From: a virus
Direction: 5' to 3' (one strand)
IMG/VR virus record: IMGVR_UViG_3300028925_014337
Coordinates: 1 to 37,958 of that record
Length of the DNA: 37,958 nucleotides
Shown: positions 9,614-37,958 of the stretch, piece after piece
How positions within the stretch are numbered: position 1 is the first letter of the stretch
How the letters are laid out: the number at the start of each line of letters is the position of its first letter
Made by a program: the position numbers and the translations under genes
The notes under the pieces: generated by a model
Databases searched by the model: none
Seen by the model: only the letters and a program-made list of their open reading frames with translations
Told to the model about the DNA's origin: nothing

Positions 9614-10729
9614 TTATAACAGATGTGGCATTGCTTCTTGTAAACCATTTGTAGTTATCTGAACAAATTCTGCATTAAGATAAAATTTATGAATTGATTC
9701 AGATCCCACATAACTCATGGCCGAACGTACCCCGTCCATTATTTCGTCTACAATTTCTTCCACAGATCCCTTATATGGTACCATAGTAGCGGTACCTTCA
9801 ATATTATTTAATTCTGCGGAAGAAATTGTCTTTTGAACATCACTAGCAGATCCATGATAGATCTTCATTTTGCGTCTATTACCATACTTACCAAAATGCT
9901 GTATGTCTCCGGGCGTTTCTTTTGTACCCGAAAACATAGACCCCAAAATAACTGAAGAGGCACCCGCGCCAAGTGCTTTAGCAACATCGCCTGGGTATCG
10001 GATTCCTCCACAAGAAATTATTGGAGTACTTGCAACATCAGAAATTGATTGAAGACAAGACATTTGTGGAATTCCGACTCCTGTTCGAATACGGGTTTCA
10101 CAAACCGATCCTCCCCCAATTCCTACACGAAGAGCATCTGCTCCCCATTTTTCTAAATCTTTAGCAGCCTCTGGTGTTGCAATATTTCCTGCTATCACTT
10201 CAAACGAAATATCCGAAGCGGTTGTTAGTGATCTCTTTAATGCACGTAAATCTCCAAGAATTTGTTTCATTGAAGAATGGTGACCGTGAGCAGTGTCAAT
10301 CAACAAAACATTAGCACCTGCTTGTAAAAGTGCTTTTGCTCTAAAGATATCCTTTTGTTTTGATCCAATAGCAGCAGCAATAACAGGATTTGTAAATCTA
10401 TGTTCTACTCTACCATCATGTTCTGAAACTTGGGAGGTGATTCTTTTGTATAAACTATTAACTATATCAGCTTGTTCATTAATGCTATTAAATCTATGAA
10501 CTATACCTACTCCTCCAAGGGCCCACATGGCATACGCCATTTCAGCCTCACAAATAGACTGCATTGGTGAGGCTATAAGGGGTATATCAATGTACCGTTT
10601 CTTGGTAAGTGAAGTTACAGTACTACAAACTTTTCTAGAACTTACATCACTATACTTTGGAATGATCTGAACATCATCAAATGTGAATGTCTTATGTTTG
10701 GAATTAAACAATGGTTCTGTATAATTCAT
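9614..10729 (-). CDS. IMP dehydrogenase/GMP reductase family enzyme, GMP-reductase-like
   Basis: 371 aa, a (beta/alpha)8 barrel with no CBS domain. Visible landmarks are FTFDDVQIIP near 15-24, IDTAHGHH (144-151), VIAGNIATPEAA (178-189), GIGGGSVCETRIRTGVGIPQ with catalytic Cys210, ISCGGIRYPGD, and EGTATMVPYKG with Glu311. The segment before Glu311 is short (YHGSASDVQ) and lacks the Arg-Tyr dyad of IMP dehydrogenases; with Thr212 and Glu311 kept this favours GMP reductase (GMP + NADPH to IMP + NH3). IMPDH activity is not excluded. The gene overlaps the GT2 gene by 26 bases. Confidence 0.85.
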   Translation of the reverse strand: MNYTEPLFNSKHKTFTFDDVQIIPKYSDVSSRKVCSTVTSLTKKRYIDIPLIASPMQSICEAEMAYAMWALGGVGIVHRFNSINEQADIVNSLYKRITSQVSEHDGRVEHRFTNPVIAAAIGSKQKDIFRAKALLQAGANVLLIDTAHGHHSSMKQILGDLRALKRSLTTASDISFEVIAGNIATPEAAKDLEKWGADALRVGIGGGSVCETRIRTGVGIPQMSCLQSISDVASTPIISCGGIRYPGDVAKALGAGASSVILGSMFSGTKETPGDIQHFGKYGNRRKMKIYHGSASDVQKTISSAELNNIEGTATMVPYKGSVEEIVDEIMDGVRSAMSYVGSESIHKFYLNAEFVQITTNGLQEAMPHLL

Positions 10730-19519: not shown

Positions 19520-20686
19520 ATGAAACAGAAACATCCATTCGAAGAACTCCGTAAAAGTCCTGACATACTGGTCGGCCTCCAATGGGGTGATGAGGGTAAG
19601 GGCAAGATCACTGACGCTCTATCAAATGACTACCAATGGATCGTTCGATACCAAGGTGGTAGCAATGCTGGCCATACGGTCTATATTGATGGTGAAAAAT
19701 TTGTAACTCATTCTATTCCTACTGGTATTCTAAATCGTAACTGTAAAGTTGTGATTACTCATGGATGTGTAATTAATATACCCGAATTGATTCAAGAAGT
19801 CAAGCTTTTAGAAGAAAACGGAATTTCGTTCAAGGATCGGTTCTATCTATCAGAGAATGCACATCTTATTACACCAGAACATTTAAAAGAAGATAAATCT
19901 AACCAAATAAAATTTGGAAGTACTGGAAAGGGAATAGGACCAGCATATAGAGATAAGATATATCGCGAAGGACTCCGTGTAAAGGATTATCCTCAAGTCA
20001 TAGATGAAGATAAGATTATAGTGACCGATACCCGAAAACTACTTCGGGATGTAATATATAAAGGAGACAAAGTACTATTTGAAGGAGCACAAGCGGCTAT
20101 GTTGGATATTGAAATGGGAACATACCCCCATGTCACATCATCTCCATGTATAGCTTCTTATGCTCCTGCTGGTTCTGGACTCCCCTTGACTTTCTTCAAA
20201 CATTCTATTATATTAGGCGTAGCAAAAGCATACACTACTCGCATTGGAACAGGGCCATTTCCTAGTGAGATTCACGATAAGAAAGTTGCACAAAATATTC
20301 AACTTACCGGAAAGGAATATGGAGCAACGACGGGTAGGCTTAGAAAAGTAGGTTGGTTGGACATTCCACAATTGAAATATGCTTGTGAAGTAAATGGAGT
20401 TTCCAGTATAGCACTAACAAAACTAGACATCTTTTCCGAAGCGGATTATGAAATTAAAGTAGCAACAGAATATAAGATTAATGGAAAATGGACAACGGAG
20501 TATTGTGACGAACCAGAATCCATCCGTTATGAAAGTTTTTCTGCTTGGCCAGAAATTACTGAAACCAATTGGGACGGCTTGCCAGATAATCTTAAAAAGT
20601 ATGTTGATTTTATTGAAGAATCTGTTGGTGTAAATATTTCCATGATAGGTGTGGGCCCAGACCGCAATCAATTAATACACAGGTAG
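19520..20686 (+). CDS. purA: Adenylosuccinate synthetase family enzyme
   Basis: 388 aa. PurA hallmarks: QWGDEGKGKI with Asp24 and the P-loop at 21-30, GGSNAGHT with His52, TGKGIGPAYRD near 135-145, FEGAQAAMLDIEMGTYPHVTS near 187-207 and GATTGRLRKVGWLD. PurA condenses IMP and aspartate using GTP to make adenylosuccinate. It is shorter than bacterial PurA (about 430 aa) because the helical part after GLRVKD is reduced, approaching the compact archaeal/phage forms. The catalytic Asp is kept, so the Ser seen in phage PurZ (2-aminoadenine pathway) is absent. Own promoter upstream; a glycosyltransferase follows after 4 bases. Confidence 0.92.
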   Translation: MKQKHPFEELRKSPDILVGLQWGDEGKGKITDALSNDYQWIVRYQGGSNAGHTVYIDGEKFVTHSIPTGILNRNCKVVITHGCVINIPELIQEVKLLEENGISFKDRFYLSENAHLITPEHLKEDKSNQIKFGSTGKGIGPAYRDKIYREGLRVKDYPQVIDEDKIIVTDTRKLLRDVIYKGDKVLFEGAQAAMLDIEMGTYPHVTSSPCIASYAPAGSGLPLTFFKHSIILGVAKAYTTRIGTGPFPSEIHDKKVAQNIQLTGKEYGATTGRLRKVGWLDIPQLKYACEVNGVSSIALTKLDIFSEADYEIKVATEYKINGKWTTEYCDEPESIRYESFSAWPEITETNWDGLPDNLKKYVDFIEESVGVNISMIGVGPDRNQLIHR

Positions 20687-20690
20687 ACGT

Positions 20691-22034
20691 ATGGACTTTT
20701 TTGAATTTGGATCGAATGATGTAACTAAAACAAAAAGAATTTTAGTATATCCAAATATAACCTTTTCAAAAGATCTTGAGCAAGATTCATATGTTCAAGT
20801 TATGAAGAAACTTATATTTGAACTTTCCAAGGTAAGGGATGATTTATACTGGTACATAATAAGTCCAGAAAAAATTAAAGGATTACAATTTGATAATGTA
20901 TATCAATTTATAGCGCCGTTTCCAACATACCCTCCTACAATGAGATGCCATTTTGACACATTTAGCATAAAAGAACATTTATCAAAAAAGTATGACTTTG
21001 ATTTAATTTTCAGTCATCTACCAGAACACACTTGGAATTTAGTAAATTTATTAAAAAACAATACCTATCACAATGTTCCTGTTCTTGGATATTCTCATTG
21101 GTTTGATTTCGATCATATACAATCGTGGCCAGTTGGAGCATTTAACGAAAATATGTTAGGTCTTTTGGAAATGGAAAAGTGCTATATAAATACGGAGTAT
21201 CAAAAACAACTAGTATTAAAAGAAGCAGAAAAAACATTTAATCAAAATACTATAGATAAATTATCTAATATCTTAGAACCCTTTTATTTAGGAGTATCTA
21301 GAGAAGATCTAAGTCCACCAAAAGAATCAAAAAAATGTATTGTATTTAACCACAGACCCCACGCATATAAAAACTTTACTCCCTTCCTTAATATGTGTAG
21401 TAAATTATACAAAACAAGACAAGATTTTGAAGTATGGGTTCCGCTGTGGGAAACGAAAGTTACAGAGAAATTTAAATGGTTAAATACTGATAAGTTTGAT
21501 AAAGAAGGATATTATCGAAAACTTCAAACCTGTAGAGTTGGCTTTTCACCAGAACAAACGTATGGTGGGTGGTCTGTAGCAACTACAGATGGGTTGATGA
21601 ATGGGTGTCCGTTTATTATGTATGATGCTGATTATTATAAAGAACTAAACCCAACCGCTGATTTCTTTACTACAGAAGATGAAGCTATAACTTTACTAAA
21701 CAAATATCTAGATGATGACTCTTATCGTAATGAAAAAGCAACAGAATCCTTTAATTATGTTTCTGAAAATCTTCTTTATGAGTATTCTATTGGAAAACTT
21801 TCAAACGATATTGATAGTATAATAAACAATTCATATGGTGTTGGTAATTCGAAAAAACTTACTAACATGATCAACTATATTAAAGATAAAAAAGTTGTAT
21901 CAAAGGCTGATCTAATTGAAAAGACCGGATGGGGAAGAGGAATTAAATTTTCTCCATACCGAAGATCGTTGATGAATCATCCAAATATTTTTGACAAAAT
22001 GGGAATGCTTCCATATTATACTTGGTTAGACTGA
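20691..22034 (+). CDS. GT-B-type glycosyltransferase
   Basis: 447 aa. The C-terminal nucleotide-sugar domain is suggested by IVFNHRPHAYKNFTPFLNM (about 220-240) and by GGWSVATTDGLMNGCPFIMY (about 300-320), typical of GT4-like enzymes. The last about 60 residues (KADLIEKTGWGRGIKFSPYR) look like a helix-turn-helix-type add-on, unusual for a sugar-polymer enzyme. DNA base glycosylation as in T4 would be one possibility; virion or surface glycan is another. It is 4 bases after purA and overlaps the end of the convergent DUF1552 gene by 9 bases. Confidence 0.7.
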   Translation: MDFFEFGSNDVTKTKRILVYPNITFSKDLEQDSYVQVMKKLIFELSKVRDDLYWYIISPEKIKGLQFDNVYQFIAPFPTYPPTMRCHFDTFSIKEHLSKKYDFDLIFSHLPEHTWNLVNLLKNNTYHNVPVLGYSHWFDFDHIQSWPVGAFNENMLGLLEMEKCYINTEYQKQLVLKEAEKTFNQNTIDKLSNILEPFYLGVSREDLSPPKESKKCIVFNHRPHAYKNFTPFLNMCSKLYKTRQDFEVWVPLWETKVTEKFKWLNTDKFDKEGYYRKLQTCRVGFSPEQTYGGWSVATTDGLMNGCPFIMYDADYYKELNPTADFFTTEDEAITLLNKYLDDDSYRNEKATESFNYVSENLLYEYSIGKLSNDIDSIINNSYGVGNSKKLTNMINYIKDKKVVSKADLIEKTGWGRGIKFSPYRRSLMNHPNIFDKMGMLPYYTWLD

Positions 22035-23456
22035 AAATATTCCAGTACTATTTCCAAACGATGTAAGATCGTTTGTAATCGGAACTCCAATCTCATTATT
22101 AGTAGAAATTTGAGTTACATTCATCTTATGTAACAAATCCAAGAATACGTTTGCCATTGGAGTTCCCCTCGGCGCTTTCACATGCGACTCACCTGCTAGA
22201 ATGCCATTTCCACCACCAACAAGGAATAATGGACATTTAACGTGATTATGAAGATTACTATCTCCCATTGCAGACCCATATAACAGTAAAGTCTTATCTA
22301 ACAGGTTAGAATCCCCTTCCATTGTATTTTGAAGTTTTTCAAGGAAATACGGCAATATTCCTACATGATGTTTATTAATCTTCGCAAATTCTAAAATTCT
22401 CTCTTCGTTACCACCATGATGTGAAGCAACGTGGAATGGTTGATCAGATCCACTATTCGTATAAACTCTAGGTGATGCATCTCGTCCTAACTTCAAAGAG
22501 AAAACCCTAGTACTGTCAGATATAAATGCTGCGAGTTGCAGATCAAACATTAATTTAACATGTTCCTCAAAGTCATCGGGGACACCGACTGGAGCTGTAG
22601 GTATGTTACGTTCATCACCACTTAAATTTTGGGCTTCAATTCGTTGAATTCGTTGTTCAAGTTCTCTAACGTTTTGCATATAGCTATCTAGTCGGTGCTG
22701 ATCTACTGGACCTAACTTCTTTTGCAAAGTAGACATTTCATCTAAAACCCAATCAAGAATACTACTATTAGATCTTGATCGTTCACTTCGTTGAGCAGCT
22801 GAACCCCCAGCACCAAATAATTGTTCAAATATTGCACGAGGGTCGCGAAGCATTGGTAATGGCTTATCTGGTGCTGACCAACTAAGGGTATCAGTATACG
22901 CACATGAGTATCCATAAGCACACCCTCCCGCTTGATCAACATTTTCAATTGACATCTGTAATGAAGGAATTGGAGTTTCATGTCCATACTGTTGTGCAAA
23001 TACTTGGTCAAACGAAGTTCCAACGTGAAGGTCAGATCCTTGTGTTTGTTTTGGATGTGATTGGGTCAAGAAAACAGCAGTAGATCTAAAATGATCACCA
23101 CCAATCTCTTGGGGTGAGAAAGCATCTGCCATTCTACAATCTGTATCACTAACAATTGTTAAATATTTTCGGAATGGTTCTAGGGATTGGAGACTAGTTG
23201 GAGAAAGATCAAAATTTCGACCCTCATCTGCAGGACTCCAAAGATTTTGTGATCCACCCCAATCGTTACTACCTGCGGCGCCGTGTACTTGTTCAATACA
23301 AACTAATCGGGGAGTATCCGCCGACTTACCAGCTTCAGTAGCCATCAAGTGTTTTCCTGCAGGAATCATTGCATCAAGCAGTGGCAATCCAAGTGTAGTT
23401 CCCACACCACGAAGCATGGTACGACGAGATATACGCTTTCCAGTAATAAAAGTCAT
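22026..23456 (-). CDS. DUF1552 family Tat-exported protein (copy B)
   Basis: 476 aa from the ATG at 23454-23456, chosen for its AAAGGAAA site and because the Tat signal starts there: KRISRRTMLRGVGTTLGLPL. DUF1552 landmarks are VCIEQVHGAAGSNDWGG, ICSYGYSCAYTD-like text around GGCAYGYSCAY, VFSLKLGRDASPRVY, ASHHGGNEERI and GSAMGDSNLHNHVKCPLFLVG. Family members are exported proteins of unknown role in Planctomycetes and other bacteria. It lies 10 bases after the A-type Fe-S carrier and is a paralogue of copy A. Rare in phages as far as I know. Confidence 0.85.
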   Translation of the reverse strand: MTFITGKRISRRTMLRGVGTTLGLPLLDAMIPAGKHLMATEAGKSADTPRLVCIEQVHGAAGSNDWGGSQNLWSPADEGRNFDLSPTSLQSLEPFRKYLTIVSDTDCRMADAFSPQEIGGDHFRSTAVFLTQSHPKQTQGSDLHVGTSFDQVFAQQYGHETPIPSLQMSIENVDQAGGCAYGYSCAYTDTLSWSAPDKPLPMLRDPRAIFEQLFGAGGSAAQRSERSRSNSSILDWVLDEMSTLQKKLGPVDQHRLDSYMQNVRELEQRIQRIEAQNLSGDERNIPTAPVGVPDDFEEHVKLMFDLQLAAFISDSTRVFSLKLGRDASPRVYTNSGSDQPFHVASHHGGNEERILEFAKINKHHVGILPYFLEKLQNTMEGDSNLLDKTLLLYGSAMGDSNLHNHVKCPLFLVGGGNGILAGESHVKAPRGTPMANVFLDLLHKMNVTQISTNNEIGVPITNDLTSFGNSTGIFSV

Positions 23457-23466
23457 TGTGTTTCCT

Positions 23467-23790
23467 TTAAGCTGTGAATGAACTCCCACAACCACAACCA
23501 CCTGTCGCGTTGGGGTTGTTAAAAACAAAACCCTGTCCCATCATACTTGATGTATAATCAATTTCTATACCATCAAGATATTGTGAACTAAAGGCATCAA
23601 TAAAAATTTTGATCCCTTGCAACTCAAAAATTTCATCATCTGGCTCAGAAGTTTCTTCAATATTTAATCCATATTGAAAACCCGAACAGCCTCCGGGGAG
23701 AACTGAAACACGAAGTCCAGCATTTTCAGTGGCTTCCAAATTTTCAATAAAATCACGAACTTTTTCCGTTGCCGCAGTTGTTAATGTCAT
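23467..23790 (-). CDS. A-type iron-sulfur carrier protein (IscA/ErpA/HesB family)
   Basis: 107 aa, the usual length. The three family cysteines are in LPGGCSGFQYGL (Cys35) and GGCGCGSSF near the C-terminus. Such proteins carry Fe-S clusters to apoproteins and are known auxiliary genes in aquatic T4-like phages. It sits between the two DUF1552 genes in one transcript. TAAGGAAC precedes the ATG. Confidence 0.93.
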   Translation of the reverse strand: MTLTTAATEKVRDFIENLEATENAGLRVSVLPGGCSGFQYGLNIEETSEPDDEIFELQGIKIFIDAFSSQYLDGIEIDYTSSMMGQGFVFNNPNATGGCGCGSSFTA

Positions 23791-23811: not shown

Positions 23812-25191
23812 TCAAGCTGATAACGATAATGCTTCTGTACTATCCCCAAAGGATTCTACATGGTCCATTCCCAATGTATGTAGAAAGGATAACATGGCGT
23901 TTGCCATTGGAGTTCCATTTGGAGTACTTATGTGATTTTCTCCACCAATCCGACCATTGGCTCCACCAAGAACTATAAGAGGACAGCGTTTATGATTATG
24001 TAGATTACTATCTCCCATCGGCGAACCATAGACGATCATTGTCTTATCAAGCATATTGCTATCACCTTCTGTTATATCTTTAAGTTTATCTAAGAAATAT
24101 GGAAGTGTACCAACATGATATTTGTTAATTATTTCAAAATTAAGAACCGCCTCTTCATTTCCACCGTGATGTGATGCTGGGTGGAATGGAGAATCCGTTC
24201 CACTTTCTGGATAAACTCTTGAAGACGAATCCCGTCCCATTTTAAATGAAAATACTCTTGTAACGTCTGACGCAAAAGCAAGTGCTTGTAAATCAAACAT
24301 CTGTCGTGTATGTTCACCAAATGAGTCAGGTACTCCCGCAGGAGCTTGTGGCATTTCTCTCAATTCACCACTTAGGTTTCGAGCTTCAGTTCTTTCAATC
24401 CTACGTTCAAGTTCTCTAAGATAATCAAAATATTTTTCAAGTCGCTCAGTATCATTGGGACCAAGTTGTCGCATAAGTTGCGGCATTTGAGACTGTACCA
24501 TATCAATAATACTTTGTTTTGTTTTCCTACGAATCGCGCGGTCTTTAGGAGTACCCCCAGAACCAAAGAGTTGTTCAAAAGCAACTCGCGGGTCGCGAAT
24601 AACAGGCAACGGCTCAGTGGGTGACGCCCAACTAATCGAATCGGTGTATGCACATGTGTATCCATAAGCACATCCACCAGCTTGGTCAATGTTCTCAATA
24701 CAAAGTTGCATCGAAGGAATAGCTGTATCTTGTCCAGCCCACTTGGCGTATAATTGATCTAGAGAAGTACCTACATGAACATCAGACCCTTCTGTTTGTT
24801 TTGGATGTGATTGGGTTAGGAAAACCGCACTAGACCTGAAGTGATCTCCTCCAATTTCTTTTGCTTCAAACGCTTCAGCCATTCTAACATCAGTATTACT
24901 GATAATAGTAAGATCTTTACGATATGGATCTAGGGGACTGAGAGAAGACGGAGTTAAATCAAAATTTCGACCAGTCTCTTGGGGGGACCATAAGTTCTGG
25001 GTAGCACCCCACTCGTTACATCCAGCGGCTCCGTGAACCATTTCTATTGTTACAAGCCTCGTAGGGTCCGCCGCATGTGATGACATCCGTCCAGCGGGAC
25101 GCATTACATCTAAAAACGGTAGTGCTATTGTTGCACCCATGCCACGAAGCATTGTACGTCTAGAAATGCGTCTTCCAGCATTAAAATTCAT
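23812..25191 (-). CDS. DUF1552 family Tat-exported protein (copy A)
   Basis: 459 aa from the ATG at 25189-25191, supported by a CTGGAGAAA ribosome site. The Tat motif RRISRRTMLRG is at residues 7-17, followed by a hydrophobic ATIALPFLDVM. DUF1552 landmarks match copy B throughout (VTIEMVHGAAGCNEWG, GGCAYGYTCAYTDS, VFSFKMGRDSSSRVY, GSPMGDSNLHNHKRCP). The two copies align along their length, indicating an ancient duplication within the cassette. It is the first gene after the promoter at 25228-25256. Function of the family is unknown. Confidence 0.87.
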   Translation of the reverse strand: MNFNAGRRISRRTMLRGMGATIALPFLDVMRPAGRMSSHAADPTRLVTIEMVHGAAGCNEWGATQNLWSPQETGRNFDLTPSSLSPLDPYRKDLTIISNTDVRMAEAFEAKEIGGDHFRSSAVFLTQSHPKQTEGSDVHVGTSLDQLYAKWAGQDTAIPSMQLCIENIDQAGGCAYGYTCAYTDSISWASPTEPLPVIRDPRVAFEQLFGSGGTPKDRAIRRKTKQSIIDMVQSQMPQLMRQLGPNDTERLEKYFDYLRELERRIERTEARNLSGELREMPQAPAGVPDSFGEHTRQMFDLQALAFASDVTRVFSFKMGRDSSSRVYPESGTDSPFHPASHHGGNEEAVLNFEIINKYHVGTLPYFLDKLKDITEGDSNMLDKTMIVYGSPMGDSNLHNHKRCPLIVLGGANGRIGGENHISTPNGTPMANAMLSFLHTLGMDHVESFGDSTEALSLSA

Positions 25192-25227
25192 TAGTTTCTC
25201 CAGTTCTCCAATATATAATGTGTGTAT

Positions 25228-25256
25228 AATATACAACTGTAGCAGTAAAAAGTCAA
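25228..25256 (-). promoter_or_regulatory. Sigma-70-type promoter of the DUF1552-FeS-DUF1552 operon
   Basis: Leftward TTGACT (25256-25251), 17-base spacer, TATATT (25233-25228), about 36 bases before the DUF1552 copy A ATG. Matches the other promoters of the window. Confidence 0.78.
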
Positions 25257-25345
25257 GAGAATTTTTCAACCCCCATACTAATAAATATCAAATTAGTAAA
25301 ACAAACAACCTATTTATAGTAAGTGGCAGTTATATATTTTTAGTT

Positions 25346-29004: not shown

Positions 29005-30801
29005 GTGTTTAAATATATTCTTGCTCTATTACTTGTCTTCATATACACAACAGAGGCCGAAGCCCAAGCTATAACACAAACTTGGATTGACCCCTGTACT
29101 GGTGATGTCCAAACCGCTATATTTGTTGTTGGAATGGGCGCAATTACTATAATGTATCGAGGCCAGGGGCGAGCATTTACCAAACAGGACTTCATAGACG
29201 GAACCTTAATGTCATGGATAACGGAAACTACCGCAAGCATTCCCTGTCCTGTTAATCCTGTTGTCGCCGCTACCGTAAATGCAGCCGCACAAGCAGCTGC
29301 TAGAGCCGCGGCCGAAGCTGCAGCTAGAGCCGCTGCACAGGCTGCAGCGGAAGCTGCGGCAGCATCCGCAGCAGCAGCCGCAGCAGCTGCCGCAGCAGAA
29401 GCAGCTGCCCAAGCAGCCGCCGCAGCGGCCGCCGAAGCGGCTGCAGCCGCAGCTGCCGAATCCGCAGCCGCCGCAGCGGCAGAAGCAGCCGCAGCCGCCG
29501 CAGCAGAAGCCGCAGCCGCAGCAGCGGCCGAAGCCGCGGCCTCTGCAGCCGCGGAAGAAGCTGCGGCCGCAGCCGCCGCAGCCGCTGCAGCCGCTGCATC
29601 CGCAGCTGACGCATCTACTTCTACAACTACTACTGGAACTACTACGACCACAACCACTTCGGGAACCACGACTAGCGGTAGTACCACAACGTCAACAACT
29701 AGTTCTACGTCTACTGATGCTTCAACGGGTAGTACGTCCACCACGACCAGTTCTACGTCCTCTGACGCAAGTACGGGTAATGCTAGTGAAACAACTACTA
29801 CCACATCTACTGACACAAGTACGGGTGAAACTACCACCACCTCATCTACTACCGAAACGGATGCAAGTACTGGTGAAACAACTACTACCGAAACTTCTAG
29901 TACTACTGAAGAATCTAGTACGGCCACAACTGAAACTGAAACAGAAGCCCCGGCTGAAACTGAAACAGAAGCCGCGGCTGAAACTGAAACGGCTGAACCG
30001 GAAGCTGAGGCCGAGGTCGAAGCTGAACCGGAAGCTGAGGCCGAAGCCGAAGCTGAGACTGAAACAGAAGAAACTGAAGCTGAGGCTGAAGCTGAAGAAA
30101 CGGAAGAGGAAACTGAAGAAACTGAATCTTCTGAAGACGAAGCTCCCCAAAACCCTCTTCTAATTGCATCTGATTTAACGGTTGGTCAGAATATGGACAA
30201 AAGTTTTTCAACCATATTGACAATGGGAATATCTCAATCTTCTATGGCTGGTGATGTAACTTTCGGAGCAACTGGAATGGTTTGGTCTAATTTAAATCAA
30301 TTTGCTTTGGCCGGATCATATACAAAAATGAACTTTACTCCAGAAGGCGCCTTGAATGATATTGACAACTATACCCTCGCTACCGCTTATATGAGTGGAA
30401 GTTATATGACAATGTTTGGATACACTTGGGTTAAATCACATTTAAAATATGGAACGTATGGTTACAATGTAGGAGTCATTGGTATGTTTACAAAAAACAA
30501 TGACAAATTTGAAAAATCTTTTATAGGTAACGTTGCTACGTTCTGGACAAAACCCTTTGTCGTATCAGAAAGACTTGCAATTTCTCCTCAAATATTTGTA
30601 ACAAACAGTCCAGTAATGTATCAACATAATATTAACGAATTCATATCTAATCAAGAGTTAAGCGGAATGGTTGGAGCAGCATTTGATTTTGCAATCACCA
30701 GAAGATTCGCTTTCAGTACTGCATATCGGTTCTCCGGTGCTACAGTCTCAGAAGTTCCTATCCTTCACTTCTTTATGGTAGGATCAAGATATACGCTCTA
30801 G
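29005..30801 (+). CDS. Large low-complexity (Ala/Thr/Glu) exported protein with probable beta-barrel C-terminus
   Basis: 598 aa from a GTG start (29005). Signal peptide 1-20, a small Cys-containing domain (21-90), an Ala-rich block with spaced Glu/Gln/Arg (92-202), a Thr/Ser block with TDASTG-type repeats (203-310), a Glu/Ala/Thr acidic block (310-380), then a folded domain (383-598) rich in alternating strands and aromatic residues (ALAGSYTKMNFTPEGALNDI, FAFSTAYRFSGATVSEVPIL) like an outer-membrane barrel. It is next to the CsgG gene. It may be an adhesin or displayed stalk. Repeats make it prone to length variation. Confidence 0.75.
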   Translation: MFKYILALLLVFIYTTEAEAQAITQTWIDPCTGDVQTAIFVVGMGAITIMYRGQGRAFTKQDFIDGTLMSWITETTASIPCPVNPVVAATVNAAAQAAARAAAEAAARAAAQAAAEAAAASAAAAAAAAAAEAAAQAAAAAAAEAAAAAAAESAAAAAAEAAAAAAAEAAAAAAAEAAASAAAEEAAAAAAAAAAAAASAADASTSTTTTGTTTTTTTSGTTTSGSTTTSTTSSTSTDASTGSTSTTTSSTSSDASTGNASETTTTTSTDTSTGETTTTSSTTETDASTGETTTTETSSTTEESSTATTETETEAPAETETEAAAETETAEPEAEAEVEAEPEAEAEAEAETETEETEAEAEAEETEEETEETESSEDEAPQNPLLIASDLTVGQNMDKSFSTILTMGISQSSMAGDVTFGATGMVWSNLNQFALAGSYTKMNFTPEGALNDIDNYTLATAYMSGSYMTMFGYTWVKSHLKYGTYGYNVGVIGMFTKNNDKFEKSFIGNVATFWTKPFVVSERLAISPQIFVTNSPVMYQHNINEFISNQELSGMVGAAFDFAITRRFAFSTAYRFSGATVSEVPILHFFMVGSRYTL

Positions 30802-32600: not shown

Positions 32601-33620
32601 ATGCTAAAATCGAAACTGGAGTACATCTGGCTGGACGGAAATCGCCCGGCTCAGAGCCTGCGTAGCAAAACCAAAGTTTTGGCTGACTTCACCGGCAACC
32701 TTGAAGAGTGTCCTATATGGTCGTTCGATGGAAGTTCGACGGGACAAGCCCCCGGCGGTACGTCAGACTGTTTGTTGAAACCCGTTGCAATCTTCCCAGA
32801 CCCCGGCCGCCACAACGCATTTTTGGTAATGACGGAAGTATTGAATGCGAACGGAATGCCACATGAATCAAACGCCCGGGCGATGATTGAAGATGACGAT
32901 AGCGACTTCTGGTTCGGTTTTGAGCAGGAGTACTTCCTATGGGACACGATCACCGATCTCCCGCTCGGATTTCCGGTGGGTGGTTTCCCCGGTCCACAGG
33001 GACCGTATTACTGCTCTGTCGGAGCAAAGAACACCTTCGGGCGGGAAATTGTCGAAGAACATTTGGACATGTGCCTCGAAGCGGGCCTTAACATCCACGG
33101 CATCAACGCCGAAGTAGCTTCAGGTCAGTGGGAATTCCAGAGTTTCGCAAAGGGCGCTGCGGCCGCCGGCGACGAGACTTGGATCGCACGTTATCTGCTC
33201 GAGCGAACGGCTGAGAAGCATGGAATATCGGTGAACTGGCATTGCAAGCCCATTGGGGGTGATTGGAACGGTTCGGGAATGCACTGCAACTTTTCGAACA
33301 CCACGTTACGGGAATCTGGCGATCAGGCGACGGTTGAGTCGATCTGTGAGGCTTTCGGTACATCGCCTGAGGTTATCAAAGACCATATCGCCGTGTATGG
33401 TTCACAGAACCACCTTCGGTTAACCGGACTACACGAAACTCAATCAATTGACAAGTTTAGTTATGCCATTTCAGATCGTGGCGCATCGATTCGAATTCCG
33501 ATTGGCATGGTCAACAACGGTTGGAAAGGATATCTTGAGGATCGCCGTCCCGCTTCGGACGCTGATCCGTACAAGGTTGCATCAGCGATCATTCGCACGG
33601 TTAAAGGTGTGGTGTTATAA
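32601..33620 (+). CDS. glnII: Type II glutamine synthetase (GSII)
   Basis: 339 aa, the compact eukaryote/GlnII-type length. Landmarks: WSFDGSSTGQA (40-50), FGFEQEYFLWD with metal-binding Glu108 and Glu110, GINAEVASGQWEFQ (167-180), WNGSGMHCNFS (222-232), NHLRLTGLHET, RGASIRIP and YLEDRRPASDADPYKV. It makes glutamine from glutamate, ammonia and ATP. GC content and codon choice are clearly higher in GC than neighbouring genes, as if acquired recently. A tRNA-Glu follows. All listed active-site motifs are intact. Confidence 0.92.
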   Translation: MLKSKLEYIWLDGNRPAQSLRSKTKVLADFTGNLEECPIWSFDGSSTGQAPGGTSDCLLKPVAIFPDPGRHNAFLVMTEVLNANGMPHESNARAMIEDDDSDFWFGFEQEYFLWDTITDLPLGFPVGGFPGPQGPYYCSVGAKNTFGREIVEEHLDMCLEAGLNIHGINAEVASGQWEFQSFAKGAAAAGDETWIARYLLERTAEKHGISVNWHCKPIGGDWNGSGMHCNFSNTTLRESGDQATVESICEAFGTSPEVIKDHIAVYGSQNHLRLTGLHETQSIDKFSYAISDRGASIRIPIGMVNNGWKGYLEDRRPASDADPYKVASAIIRTVKGVVL

Positions 33621-33811: not shown

Positions 33812-34156
33812 GGGCCCGTCCCGGTTTCGACGTATTAATGGAATGATGTTAATGCTGTGAACGGAGTGGTAACCGTAATTACCACAAGCTAAATTGAATT
33901 GACAATTACGCTAAGGCTGCTTAGTCACAAGTAAGCCGTTTATTTGATTCTCCTTCAAGAAAATAAACGTACAGCGAAGGATGACTTCTAAGAAAGAATA
34001 GATGCAGAATCAAGGCCAGAGATCCTTGGTCGAACTTACCATATCGTTAAGAGTAATGAGGAATGTCTCGCCGTCCTAATGGTAAAAGAGACTGACACAG
34101 GGAATACGACAGAAATGAAGTTAGTGCGGACGCGGGTTCGACTCCCGCCGGGTCCA
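33812..34156 (+). ncRNA. ssrA: tmRNA (ssrA)
   Basis: 345 nt. The 5' end GGGCCCG pairs with 3' CGGGUCC, giving the alanine-identity G3-U70 pair. The tRNA-like domain has GGTTTCGACG at the 5' side and GCGGGTTCGACTCCCGC as T-arm. A PK1-like hairpin GTGGTAA/TTACCAC (33866-33885) precedes the tag. The tag frame reads IDNYAKAA then TAG (33898-33924), close to the usual DENYALAA end. An in-frame TGA lies just before it (33895-33897). CCA is not encoded. tmRNA rescues stalled ribosomes and tags products for proteolysis. Confidence 0.9.
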
Positions 34157-34180
34157 CTTTTAGATGTATGGAAATGTCGA

Positions 34181-35311: not shown

Positions 35312-35450
35312 TTATTATAACAAAAAAAATATGCTGCCAATATTTTATAATAGCAAGTTATTATAGTAAAAAACGGTGCCGACGATACGGATGACGCTAA
35401 AAAGAATAGCAAGTTATTATAGCAAAAAAATATGCCGCCGATGTGGATGT
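35312..35450. repeat. Three imperfect tandem repeats
   Basis: Units begin TTATTATA[AG][CT]AAAAAA near 35312, 35358 and 35414, each followed by a TGC[CT]GCC- or TGCCGACG-like part; AATAGCAAG precedes the second and third. Spacing is 46 and 56 bases. No protein is encoded. Confidence 0.6.
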
Positions 35451-35554
35451 CGCCCAGGCCCACCCCTTTTTTGAAGGGGGGGTACCCCCTGTTTACAATT
35501 AAGTATCCTCCTACCCCGGTCCCAACGACCCCCTACATCCGACCCGTTTTCCCC

Positions 35555-35583
35555 TTGACTTTATACTCCAAAACCGTTAGCTT
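35555..35583 (+). promoter_or_regulatory. Sigma-70-type promoter, leaderless gene 35591
   Basis: CCCCTTGACT (-35 at 35555-35560), 17-base spacer, TAGCTT (35578-35583). Only 7 bases (TAAGGGT) separate it from the ATG at 35591. Confidence 0.75.
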
Positions 35584-35590
35584 TAAGGGT

Positions 35591-35899
35591 ATGATTTTAC
35601 ACACCCCCTCCAAGGTAAACTATGGAATATGTAAAAGGTTGGATCTCATTTATGGTCTGTTTCGTCGTAGGTTGGATTTATGGAAAGGTATACCTCTCTC
35701 AAGAGAGTCAAGAGAGCGATTCCTAATGACCTCTCAGGAAACCACCGACGCACACTTCACCGCCGACTTTTGTGTGAGGGTCTTGTATCGTGCCTCTAGG
35801 GACGCCTGGATCTGTGGTGATGAGGTGGAAGCGGATCGGTTAGCCGACCTGGCATACCAAACCCGGATTGACATGACTCCGACAACCACCGGGGTCTAG
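35591..35899 (+). CDS. Small hypothetical protein, predicted leaderless message
   Basis: 102 aa. The longer upstream frame crosses the promoter, so the ATG at 35591 is taken. The product is basic at the N-terminus (MILHTPSKVNYGICKRLDLI) and has a helical ADRLADLAYQTRIDM end. No family recognised. The -10 box is 7 bases upstream, so the transcript should start at or next to the ATG. Confidence 0.6.
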   Translation: MILHTPSKVNYGICKRLDLIYGLFRRRLDLWKGIPLSRESRERFLMTSQETTDAHFTADFCVRVLYRASRDAWICGDEVEADRLADLAYQTRIDMTPTTTGV

Positions 35900-35904
35900 A
35901 TCTA

Positions 35905-35952
35905 TAAGTCGTTGTCTCCCTTCCGATTACAGTGGGGGTTTACCCCTTGACA
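35905..35952. repeat. Pre-promoter repeat, copy 1
   Basis: TAAGTCGTTGTC, then CGATTACAGT, then GGGGGTTTACCCC and TTGACA. It matches the copy at 37221-37268 over about 45 bases. The G/C palindrome sits directly before the -35 box. Confidence 0.65.
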
Positions 35953-35975
35953 ACCCTCCCCAATTGAGTTAGCTT
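35947..35975 (+). promoter_or_regulatory. Sigma-70-type promoter, leaderless gene 35982
   Basis: CCCCTTGACA (-35 at 35947-35952), 17-base spacer, TAGCTT (35970-35975). Six bases (TAGGGT) then ATG at 35982. Confidence 0.78.
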
Positions 35976-35981
35976 TAGGGT

Positions 35982-36458
35982 ATGAAAGATAAGACAAGAG
36001 ACTCCAAGTCTCACGACGGCACCGTCCGATACGACCTGTCCATCTCAGAGACGGAATTAGGAACAGAGGACATTCACCGCTACCTGTTGAACGGGTGGGT
36101 CCAAGGGTTCGGATCTAGGACCGACACGTTTACCAACGACGAAGGAGTTGAACAGTTCTTCGACCCCACAGAGTTCGGTCCCTATGACTGCCGGGATTGG
36201 TTGAAGAATGTCCTTCCCGTCGAAGTTCTAGACACCCTCTGGTTTGACTGTGAGTCTTCTGAGTTCTTCTGTTACTCTACGGATGGGAAGATGCTTGAGA
36301 TCGTTGTTGATGTCCTGACCGACACCATCGACCGGATGAACCGAATCTGGGAGAAGTCCACTCACCGGACGATGCAGTTGTTCAACGTAAAAGACACTCG
36401 ACTCCGTGGCCACGACAGGATGGAGAGACATTGGGCTCAGATGGGACTAGGTGTATAG
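35982..36458 (+). CDS. Hypothetical protein, predicted leaderless message
   Basis: 158 aa, acidic, no recognised domain. Text such as EDIHRYLLNGWVQGFGSR and GPYDCRDWLKNVLPVEVLDT suggests a mixed fold. It is the first gene of a three-gene unit (35982, 36460, 36999) starting 6 bases after a -10 box. GC content is higher than in the left arm. Function unknown; probably an early host-takeover gene by position and promoter type. Confidence 0.6.
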   Translation: MKDKTRDSKSHDGTVRYDLSISETELGTEDIHRYLLNGWVQGFGSRTDTFTNDEGVEQFFDPTEFGPYDCRDWLKNVLPVEVLDTLWFDCESSEFFCYSTDGKMLEIVVDVLTDTIDRMNRIWEKSTHRTMQLFNVKDTRLRGHDRMERHWAQMGLGV

Positions 36459-36459
36459 G

Positions 36460-37002
36460 ATGATTATCACACGACCAGCATATCAGAACTTCCACTACAA
36501 TGGGACGAACTTCAGACAGTCGATTCAAGACCCCGACTCTCGTCTTCGGAAGTTGATTGAGTATGTCCACAACACACAGGGTCCGTTGAGATACAGCCTC
36601 AAGATCACCAAGCACGACTTCTATCAGACCATCCAACCCAAACGTGCATTTGAGGACAGGTATCGTCATGGTCCCCAAGCACCTAAGAAGTTGGGTGTGC
36701 GTGACATCGCCCCACGGGGGGCTCAACGGAGTAGAGTTCTTCGGACGGGATGGAACCAGACGTTCTGGTCCGCAATCCAGAAGGCTGGTGTCATCAAACG
36801 ACACCCCCGGAATTTGAAAGATCAGAGGGGACGGTGGTACTACACCCACGGTGAACGTTGGGATTGGTGGTTGGCCACCTATCTGTTCTTCACAAAGGAT
36901 AACACTGCATCACGGTGGATCGATGATGAGGAAGATATCCCCGAAGGTTGGACCGCCAAACCAACCCCTATCACAGACTGTGGGTGGGATCACAACCGAT
37001 GA
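36460..37002 (+). CDS. Hypothetical basic protein
   Basis: 180 aa from the ATG at 36460 (a GTG three codons earlier is also in frame and overlaps the previous gene). Arg/Trp-rich, with LGVRDIAPRGAQRSRVLRTG and GRWYYTHGERWDWWLATYLF. No family recognised. The next gene starts at its stop (ATGA overlap 36999-37002). Confidence 0.6.
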   Translation: MIITRPAYQNFHYNGTNFRQSIQDPDSRLRKLIEYVHNTQGPLRYSLKITKHDFYQTIQPKRAFEDRYRHGPQAPKKLGVRDIAPRGAQRSRVLRTGWNQTFWSAIQKAGVIKRHPRNLKDQRGRWYYTHGERWDWWLATYLFFTKDNTASRWIDDEEDIPEGWTAKPTPITDCGWDHNR

Positions 37003-37223
37003 CCAAGTACAAGATCAGTCAAGCTGTCTTCACACGACAGAGTAGAGAAGTTGAGATCTGTGCAGATTCCAAGGAGGAAGCCCTTCGGATCTACTTGTCG
37101 AGAGATGATGAATGTGTCACCCCGGAGGGCTACGAGTGGGAGGATGACCCCGACTACTGGGAAGCGACGGAGCCTCAGGTAACCATTGAAACCGACTACG
37201 CGAAGCTTCGGAGGTTGGTGTAA
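36999..37223 (+). CDS. DpnD/PcfM-like small protein
   Basis: 74 aa from the ATG at 36999, which overlaps the previous stop as ATGA. The pattern MTKYKISQAVFTRQSREVEI, then ADSKEEALRIYLS and a WEDDPDYWEATE end, matches the short DpnD/PcfM-like family often found in phages. Its role is unknown. The TAA stop begins the pre-promoter repeat copy 2. Confidence 0.6.
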   Translation: MTKYKISQAVFTRQSREVEICADSKEEALRIYLSRDDECVTPEGYEWEDDPDYWEATEPQVTIETDYAKLRRLV

Positions 37224-37268
37224 GTCGTTGTCCCACACACGAATACAGTTGGGGTTAACCCCTTGACA
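37221..37268. repeat. Pre-promoter repeat, copy 2
   Basis: TAAGTCGTTGTC, then CGAATACAGT, a perfect palindrome GGGGTTAACCCC, and TTGACA. Second copy of the block at 35905-35952; the palindrome could be an operator or a short terminator stem. Confidence 0.65.
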
Positions 37269-37291
37269 TATGACCCACAACCTGTTATATT
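37263..37291 (+). promoter_or_regulatory. Sigma-70-type promoter, leaderless gene 37298
   Basis: CCCCTTGACA (-35 at 37263-37268), 17-base spacer, TATATT (37286-37291). Six bases (ATAGGT) then ATG at 37298. Confidence 0.8.
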
Positions 37292-37297
37292 ATAGGT

Positions 37298-37492
37298 ATG
37301 AATAAGACAATCTACACCGATCAAGAAGACCTCGTATTTTCCTTCCTCGACAGACTTCGGGAGTCGGGTGTCACGAATATGTACGGTGCCGGACCATATG
37401 TCGAAGAGCACTTCGATCTCAACCGACGAGTCGCTGGAAATCTGGTCATTAAATGGATGACAACGTTTGAGGATCGCCACCTTGACAAATGA
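37298..37492 (+). CDS. Small conserved-looking protein, predicted leaderless message
   Basis: 64 aa: MNKTIYTDQEDLVFSFLDRL, then GVTNMYGAGPYVEEHF and a WMTTFED end. The pattern (DLVFSFLDRLRESG, then NMYGAGPY) recurs in phage hypotheticals I recall, without a known role. Its last codons contain the -35 box of the next promoter (TTGACA within His-Leu-Asp-Lys-stop). Confidence 0.6.
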   Translation: MNKTIYTDQEDLVFSFLDRLRESGVTNMYGAGPYVEEHFDLNRRVAGNLVIKWMTTFEDRHLDK

Positions 37493-37510
37493 CCCACAAC
37501 CTGTTATATT
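37482..37510 (+). promoter_or_regulatory. Sigma-70-type promoter, leaderless gene 37517
   Basis: TTGACA (37482-37487), 17-base spacer, TATATT (37505-37510). Twelve bases of the spacer (TGACCCACAACC) are identical to the promoter at 37263. Six bases then ATG at 37517. Confidence 0.8.
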
Positions 37511-37516
37511 ATATAT

Positions 37517-37958
37517 ATGAAAACTAAAGAAAACGAAGACATGGTGAGAGCGGAAGCTTTCGAGAAGTTGGTTAATGCAGTTTCATTGATCGGACTGACT
37601 TTAGAAACCGCAGAGTATCTGTCCGAACACGATCCTCAGGCTTTAAAGTCAATTGACGCTGCTTTGGAATCAATCGGAACCCCTGTCAAAACGTTGAGGA
37701 ACCGATCACGGGATTGGCACTTTGAAGACGCCGAACGAATGGACCGATACCTCCCGAACGATGGGAGTGCTGGATCGTTCCAGAGGCTGGGAAACACATT
37801 CCTCACCACCCGTGTTGATGGGATCTGTGCGAGGAGTGTCGAAGTGTACATTGAGGATCACCTTCAGTCACCAGATGGAACATGGGAAATGGTATTCTTC
37901 CCTCACGGGGAACCGGAGCCTAAGGGAGTGCCTGAAGATTATATGGCCATGTACGATG
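37517..37958 (+). CDS. Partial hypothetical protein running off the window
   Basis: An open frame from ATG 37517 to the right edge, 147 codons, no stop. It starts MKTKENEDMVRAEAFEKLVN, with a helical first third (LIGLTLETAEYLSEHDPQAL) and a beta-like end (RSVEVYIEDHLQSPDGTWEM). No family recognised. Start is supported by the leaderless promoter spacing seen at three other genes. Confidence 0.65.
   Translation, partial: MKTKENEDMVRAEAFEKLVNAVSLIGLTLETAEYLSEHDPQALKSIDAALESIGTPVKTLRNRSRDWHFEDAERMDRYLPNDGSAGSFQRLGNTFLTTRVDGICARSVEVYIEDHLQSPDGTWEMVFFPHGEPEPKGVPEDYMAMYD

What the first reader, a model, noticed from the sequence alone, without database searches (positions are those of the whole stretch)
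35555..37519. Four genes with predicted leaderless messages
At 35591, 35982, 37298 and 37517 the -10 box is followed by only 6-7 bases and then the ATG. Transcription normally starts about that far from the -10, so these mRNAs should lack a Shine-Dalgarno. Flanks are also conserved (GTTA around the -10, and GGT just before the ATG in three of the four). Repeated use for small, probably early, genes points to a deliberate translation mode.
Basis: partly seen in the sequence, partly recalled or inferred. Interest (0 to 1): 0.75.

Follow-up and report, generated by a model that had tools for sequence, protein, structure and literature searches.

The report
Leaderless early genes in marine phage
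Three of four small neighbouring genes at one end of this marine phage fragment sit so close behind their promoters that their messages should begin directly with the start codon; related and unrelated viruses repeat the layout, so it looks like a real, selected way of switching on early genes, though no RNA data confirm it.

Summary
Sigma-70-type promoters (TTGACA/T, 17 bp, TATATT or TAGCTT) end 6-7 bases before an ATG at 35591, 35982, 37298 and 37517. Dinucleotide shuffles of the tail give 0.015 such sites, against 4 seen.

The leaderless reading holds for three of the four (35982, 37298, 37517): the ATG is the first start of its frame, no in-frame start carries a Shine-Dalgarno (36 of 50 other genes do), and codon usage fits. 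The first (35591) is better read as a 31-nt leader with an AAGG site for a 34-aa ORF at 35622.

Independent support: (1) DNA primase genes of related phages keep TTGACA-17-TANNTT-6-ATG while the bases between differ. (2) A related phage has three more such genes at the same locus. (3) In 2.96 Mb of viral contigs, start codons cluster 5-9 nt after the -10 box, are scarce at 10-20 nt, then reappear; one unrelated virus group carries 8-16 such cassettes per record.

'Flank conservation' mostly reflects duplicated promoter copies, and 'early' is inferred. Leaderless phage genes are known (lambda cI; predicted in cluster O mycobacteriophages), so this is a new member of a known kind. No transcription start has been mapped.

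The parts
35555..35593 (+). Promoter 1: -35 TTGACT 35555-35560, -10 TAGCTT 35578-35583, 7 nt, ATG 35591
35591..35899 (+). Frame opened by the promoter-proximal ATG (102 aa); probably not the real start
   Evidence: codon-usage score worst forward frame over 35591-35725
35622..35726 (+). 34-aa hydrophobic ORF with AAGG 6 nt before its ATG (preferred first product of promoter 1)
   Evidence: sequence; best frame
35726..35899 (+). 57-aa ORF whose ATG overlaps the previous stop (TAATG), probable translational coupling
   Evidence: best frame
35935..35946 (.). Palindrome GGGGTTTACCCC abutting the -35 of promoter 2 (possible operator)
   Evidence: repeat D3
35947..35984 (+). Promoter 2: TTGACA 35947-35952, TAGCTT 35970-35975, 6 nt, ATG 35982
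35982..36458 (+). 158-aa ORF, predicted leaderless; TAG stop in frame 2 codons before the ATG; followed by ORFs 36460-37002 and 36999-37223
37251..37262 (.). Palindrome GGGGTTAACCCC abutting the -35 of promoter 3
   Evidence: repeat D3
37263..37300 (+). Promoter 3: TTGACA 37263-37268, TATATT 37286-37291, 6 nt, ATG 37298
37298..37492 (+). 64-aa ORF, predicted leaderless
37482..37519 (+). Promoter 4: TTGACA 37482-37487 (overlaps the end of the preceding ORF), TATATT 37505-37510, 6 nt, ATG 37517; 93% identical to promoter 3 over 42 nt
37517..37958 (+). ORF of at least 147 aa (cut by the contig end), predicted leaderless

Best explanation
The window is a fragment of an uncultivated T4-like myovirus, probably infecting marine Gemmatimonadota. 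Near one end, past the tRNA/tmRNA genes, small genes are driven by strong host-type sigma-70 promoters whose predicted +1 is the A of the ATG (6 nt after the -10), so the mRNA starts with 5'-AUG and is translated without a leader or Shine-Dalgarno, presumably by 70S or initiator-tRNA-dependent leaderless initiation. This applies to 35982, 37298 and 37517; promoter 1 more likely makes a short-leader mRNA. The layout is kept by selection and copied as a cassette. Shown: promoter geometry, absence of SD, frame usage, conservation of geometry in relatives. Inferred: actual TSS, translation, early timing, host.
For: Excess over shuffles, 4 vs 0.015. ATG is the first start of the frame, and no SD lies before any in-frame start in the first ~50 codons, while 36 of 50 other window genes have an SD (random ATGs 10%). 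Codon scores favour 37298 and 37517 over all five other frames, and 35982 over the other forward frames. Primase orthologues (PHROG DNA primase, E 2e-42): about seven distinct upstream sequences all have a 6-nt gap and no SD; six have TTGACA-17-TANNTT and a more distant one TTGATT-17-TATCAT, with differing spacer and gap bases. Related phage L083 has three more at the corresponding locus. In IMG/VR loci, first-ATGs of ORFs >=50 aa: 61 at gaps 5-9, 13 at gaps 10-20, 65 at gaps 21-32; 71% of ATGs at gap 6 open an ORF >=50 aa vs 12% at gap 10. The same two-mode leader lengths with none between 4 and 14 nt were measured in Lactococcus cremoris (PMC10986495).
Against: No TSS or proteome data. The tmRNA promoter (33758) and the tRNA-Lys promoters of two relatives (L083 8704-, L087 213-) also have an ATG 5-6 nt after the -10 although no gene follows, so ATG there is not proof of translation. 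The tail proteins have no detectable homologues. For 35982 one antisense frame scores slightly higher (0.083 vs 0.067), and two of the three L083 ORFs are not the best frame. The closest cultured relative, Mel-JY01, shows no such sites.
Confidence: 0.78

Rival explanations
1. The ATG is part of the promoter's initially transcribed sequence (a TATG initiator context) and translation begins elsewhere; the short-gap ATG is a transcription feature.
For: ATG at gap 5-6 also follows promoters of tmRNA and tRNA-Lys with ORFs of only 22 and 2 codons.
Against: 71% of gap-6 ATGs open ORFs of at least 50 aa against 12% at gap 10; primase and array proteins are conserved from residue 1; other stable-RNA promoters (31271, L083 9233-) lack the ATG; no alternative SD-led starts in the three genes.
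Confidence: 0.1
2. These are 5'-terminal upstream AUGs on ordinary leadered mRNAs; real genes start downstream at SD sites (dual-mode messages as described in E. coli).
For: Fits promoter 1: AAGG-6 nt-ATG at 35622, best frame, TAATG coupling to the next ORF. The class is known (PMC4965119).
Against: No SD-led in-frame start exists in the first ~50 codons of 35982, 37298 or 37517.
Confidence: 0.08
3. The geometry is inherited by recent duplication of one promoter cassette, without selection for leaderless translation.
For: Copies 37261/37480 are 93% identical and 35905/37221 83% identical.
Against: Primase promoters keep the exact 6-nt gap while spacer and gap bases differ; unrelated virus groups show the same peak in 88 protein families on 94 loci, GC 0.26-0.72.
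Confidence: 0.06

Closest known systems
Predicted leaderless SigA promoters of cluster O mycobacteriophages (Corndog group; PMC4351075)
   Different: Those serve a few operons in an actinobacterial phage; here several small genes at one end of a T4-like genome each have their own promoter.
Lambda leaderless mRNA (lambda phage is cited as the first leaderless case in PMC3160421; lambda cI named as naturally leaderless in PMC4965119)
   Same: Phage mRNA starting at AUG and translated without SD.
   Different: A single lysogeny repressor gene, not repeated cassettes of putative early genes.
'-10 adjacent to ORF' leaderless genes of Deinococcus-Thermus and TA-led genes of bacteria (PMC12340547, PMC3160421)
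   Same: -10 box a few bases before the start codon, no SD.
   Different: Chromosomal genes, described as driven by the -10 motif with the -35 as an enhancer; here a near-consensus -35 at 17-bp spacing. The putative host MAGs are mostly SD-led.

Membership tests
Leaderless sigma-70 transcription units | -10 box ending about 6-7 nt before the start codon | tested here: met
   All four sites
Leaderless sigma-70 transcription units | Recognisable -35 at 16-18 bp spacing | tested here: met
   TTGACA/T at 17 bp in all four
Leaderless sigma-70 transcription units | The promoter-proximal ATG is the real start (no SD-led alternative) | tested here: met
   Met for 35982, 37298, 37517; not met for 35591, where an SD-led ORF at 35622 is preferred
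Leaderless sigma-70 transcription units | Mapped transcription start at the A of AUG (leader under 5 nt) | not testable with these tools
   Needs TSS sequencing
Leaderless sigma-70 transcription units | Geometry conserved in orthologues despite sequence divergence | tested here: met
   Primase promoters of related phages; not testable for the window's own ORFs, which lack homologues
E. coli 5'-uAUG mRNAs with downstream SD | 5'-terminal AUG plus leader with SD before the gene | tested here: inconclusive
   Sequence fits at promoter 1 (35591 ATG, AAGG then ATG 35622); function unknown

The most novel reading that the evidence does not exclude
'One strong promoter, one small leaderless gene' cassettes form a widespread, independently adopted early-expression architecture of uncultivated phages, with viruses of otherwise SD-using hosts favouring leaderless initiation for these genes.
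Probability: 0.4. Interest if true: 0.65.

Novelty: new member of a known kind. Interest (0 to 1): 0.45.

Why it matters
If true, standard gene callers that weigh Shine-Dalgarno sites will misplace or miss a class of small phage genes, many likely to act on the host early in infection. It also gives a simple sequence signature (TTGACA-17-TATATT-6-ATG) for finding such genes in uncultivated viruses, and raises the testable question of why phages use leaderless initiation for them when their other genes (and apparently their hosts) use SD sites.

Tried and rejected
Homologues of the tail ORFs: none in IMG/VR for 35982 or 36460, none above noise in Pfam or PHROGs, none in fetched loci, so direct conservation of the window genes could not be tested. 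Relatives cannot be drawn for a virus record. A host-wide leaderless habit as explanation: the Gemmatimonadota MAGs closest by DUF1552 are SD-led, with at most a faint excess of -10 boxes at 6-7 nt and few strict promoter matches. The closest cultured relative, Microcystis phage Mel-JY01, has no ORF-opening sites at gaps 5-8. GGT before ATG as a functional element was rejected (not kept in relatives).

Full report
WHAT IS THERE. The window is a linear 38-kb virus record. Its 649-aa baseplate-like protein is 34-36% identical to proteins of Microcystis phage Mel-JY01 and Flavobacterium phage immuto, where the latter is annotated as baseplate wedge; Mel-JY01 is annotated with a T4-like capsid, so this is a T4-like myovirus fragment. 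Near the right end come tRNAs and a tmRNA, then a jump in G+C from 37% to 50% at about 35.5 kb and a run of small ORFs without detectable homologues.

CHECK OF THE OBSERVATION. All four sites are exactly as described: TTGACT/TTGACA, 17 bp, TAGCTT or TATATT, then 7, 6, 6 and 6 bases and ATG. Four such sites in the tail against 0.015 expected from dinucleotide shuffles is far beyond chance. The two strongest promoters match 11 of 12 consensus positions. Part of the similarity between sites is duplication, so they are not four independent inventions.

ARE THEY REALLY LEADERLESS? With a 6-nt gap the usual +1 falls on the A of the ATG (established knowledge). For 35982, 37298 and 37517 the ATG is the first start codon of its frame, no later in-frame start within about 50 codons carries an SD, and SD sites are the rule elsewhere in the window, 36 of 50 genes against 10% of random ATGs (the gene count allows any start in the first 80 codons, 29 of 50 at the first start). 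Codon scoring with a model from a G+C-matched Gemmatimonadota MAG gives the leaderless frame the best score of six for 37298 and 37517, and the best forward score for 35982, where one antisense frame scores slightly higher. Promoter 1 is different: its ATG frame scores worst of the forward frames over 35591-35725, while a 34-aa hydrophobic ORF at 35622 with AAGG 6 nt upstream scores best, followed by a TAATG-coupled ORF at 35726 that is best in its stretch. I therefore read promoter 1 as making an SD-led message with a 31-nt leader that may also carry a 5'-terminal AUG, like the E. coli class in PMC4965119.

RELATIVES. A viral-contig search with the baseplate protein gave 37 loci. One relative (G020, L083) has its tRNA/tmRNA array near a similar AT-rich spacer, and beyond it three further small genes with TTGAC-17-TATATT-5/6-ATG, with ORFs unrelated to those of the window. 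In that relative the promoters share TTGTTACAAT-like elements upstream of the -35, whereas in the window two carry GGGGTTAACCCC-like palindromes abutting the -35; both could be operators or activator sites (inference). Better evidence comes from the DNA primase gene (PHROG match E 2e-42): in about seven distinct upstream sequences from related phages the gap is always 6 nt and no SD is present. Six of the seven have TTGACA-17-TANNTT; a 48%-identical homologue has TTGATT-17-TATCAT. The six gap bases differ between lineages and so do the spacers. Primase is an early gene in T4 (established knowledge), which supports but does not prove early expression here.

BEYOND THIS GROUP. In 324 viral loci (2.96 Mb), after removing the seed matches, ATGs that open ORFs of at least 50 aa occur 61 times at gaps 5-9 from the -10, 13 times at 10-20, and 65 times at 21-32. 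This two-mode pattern matches leader lengths measured in Lactococcus cremoris, where none lay between 4 and 14 nt (PMC10986495). In all, 134 such genes (seed matches included) lie on 94 loci, in 88 protein families, G+C 0.26-0.72, with A at 75% directly after the ATG. One group of five mutually related records, which share no convincing homology with the window's phage, carries 8-16 such cassettes each, against none for the reversed control pattern, concentrated away from the structural genes.

COUNTER-EVIDENCE. The window's tmRNA promoter and the tRNA-Lys promoters of two relatives also have ATG 5-6 nt after the -10, followed by only 22 or 2 codons. A promoter-context bias for TATG may therefore contribute. 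The closest cultured relative lacks the layout.

HOST. The two DUF1552 proteins point to Gemmatimonadota: the one searched is 71% identical to a Gemmatimonadales MAG, and the next hits are 58-62% in other Gemmatimonadota. Sampled stretches of two of those MAGs have 51-52% G+C, like the tail of the window; the MAGs are mainly SD-led. Host assignment rests on gene transfer and is tentative.

LITERATURE. Leaderless phage messages are known: lambda (PMC3160421; PMC4965119) and predicted cluster O mycobacteriophage promoters with +1 on the start codon (PMC4351075). A '-10 next to the ORF' is a common chromosomal mode in Deinococcus-Thermus (PMC12340547). I found no paper describing arrays of leaderless single-gene cassettes in T4-like or other uncultivated phages, but the library holds only part of the literature.

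VERDICT. Observation confirmed; leaderless reading likely for three of four; mechanism known in kind. The more interesting result is that the layout recurs, with exact spacing, across related and unrelated viruses.

Noticed in passing
window 33812-34159 (+): A tmRNA gene (Rfam 80.8 bits) that ARAGORN misses; the reading frame at 33901-33924 suggests a tag ending DNYAKAA, while related phages encode DEPYLMAA and the putative host MAGs ANDNLALAA-like tags.
   Followed up: partly
window 22026-23528 (-) and 23812-25269 (-): Two DUF1552 (HXXSHH) genes in a phage; the one searched is 71% identical to a Gemmatimonadales MAG protein, suggesting a marine Gemmatimonadota host.
   Followed up: partly
window 9614-10729 (-), 19520-20686 (+), 32601-33620 (+): Metabolic genes: IMPDH/GMP reductase family, adenylosuccinate synthetase, glutamine synthetase (Pfam).
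   Followed up: no
window 35550-37958: G+C jumps from 37% to 50% in the leaderless-gene region, close to the putative host MAGs; the related phage G020 shows a similar rise at its matching end.
   Followed up: partly
L083 181-9233 (-) and L087 213-607 (-): Phage promoters share TTGTTACAAT-like elements upstream of the -35; in the window GGGGTTAACCCC-like palindromes occupy a similar place. Possible phage-specific operators.
   Followed up: no
L083 8704- and L087 213-: tRNA-Lys promoters followed at 6 nt by ATG and a stop after two codons (ATG ATT TAA; ATG AAT TGA): possible two-codon minigenes or promoter-context ATG.
   Followed up: no
L031, L137, L172, L188, L272 (records G046, G052, G056, G047, G053): A separate virus group with 8-16 strict leaderless cassettes per record and a highly uniform TTGACA-17-TATATT signature; terminase only about 24% identical to cultured phages.
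   Followed up: partly
window 29005-30801 (+): 598-aa protein with long Ala-, Thr/Ser- and Glu-rich low-complexity stretches; no Pfam match.
   Followed up: no
window 35349-35397 and 35405-35453: Direct repeat of 49 nt (84%) in the AT-rich spacer before the leaderless genes; a similar spacer occurs at the matching place in L083.
   Followed up: no
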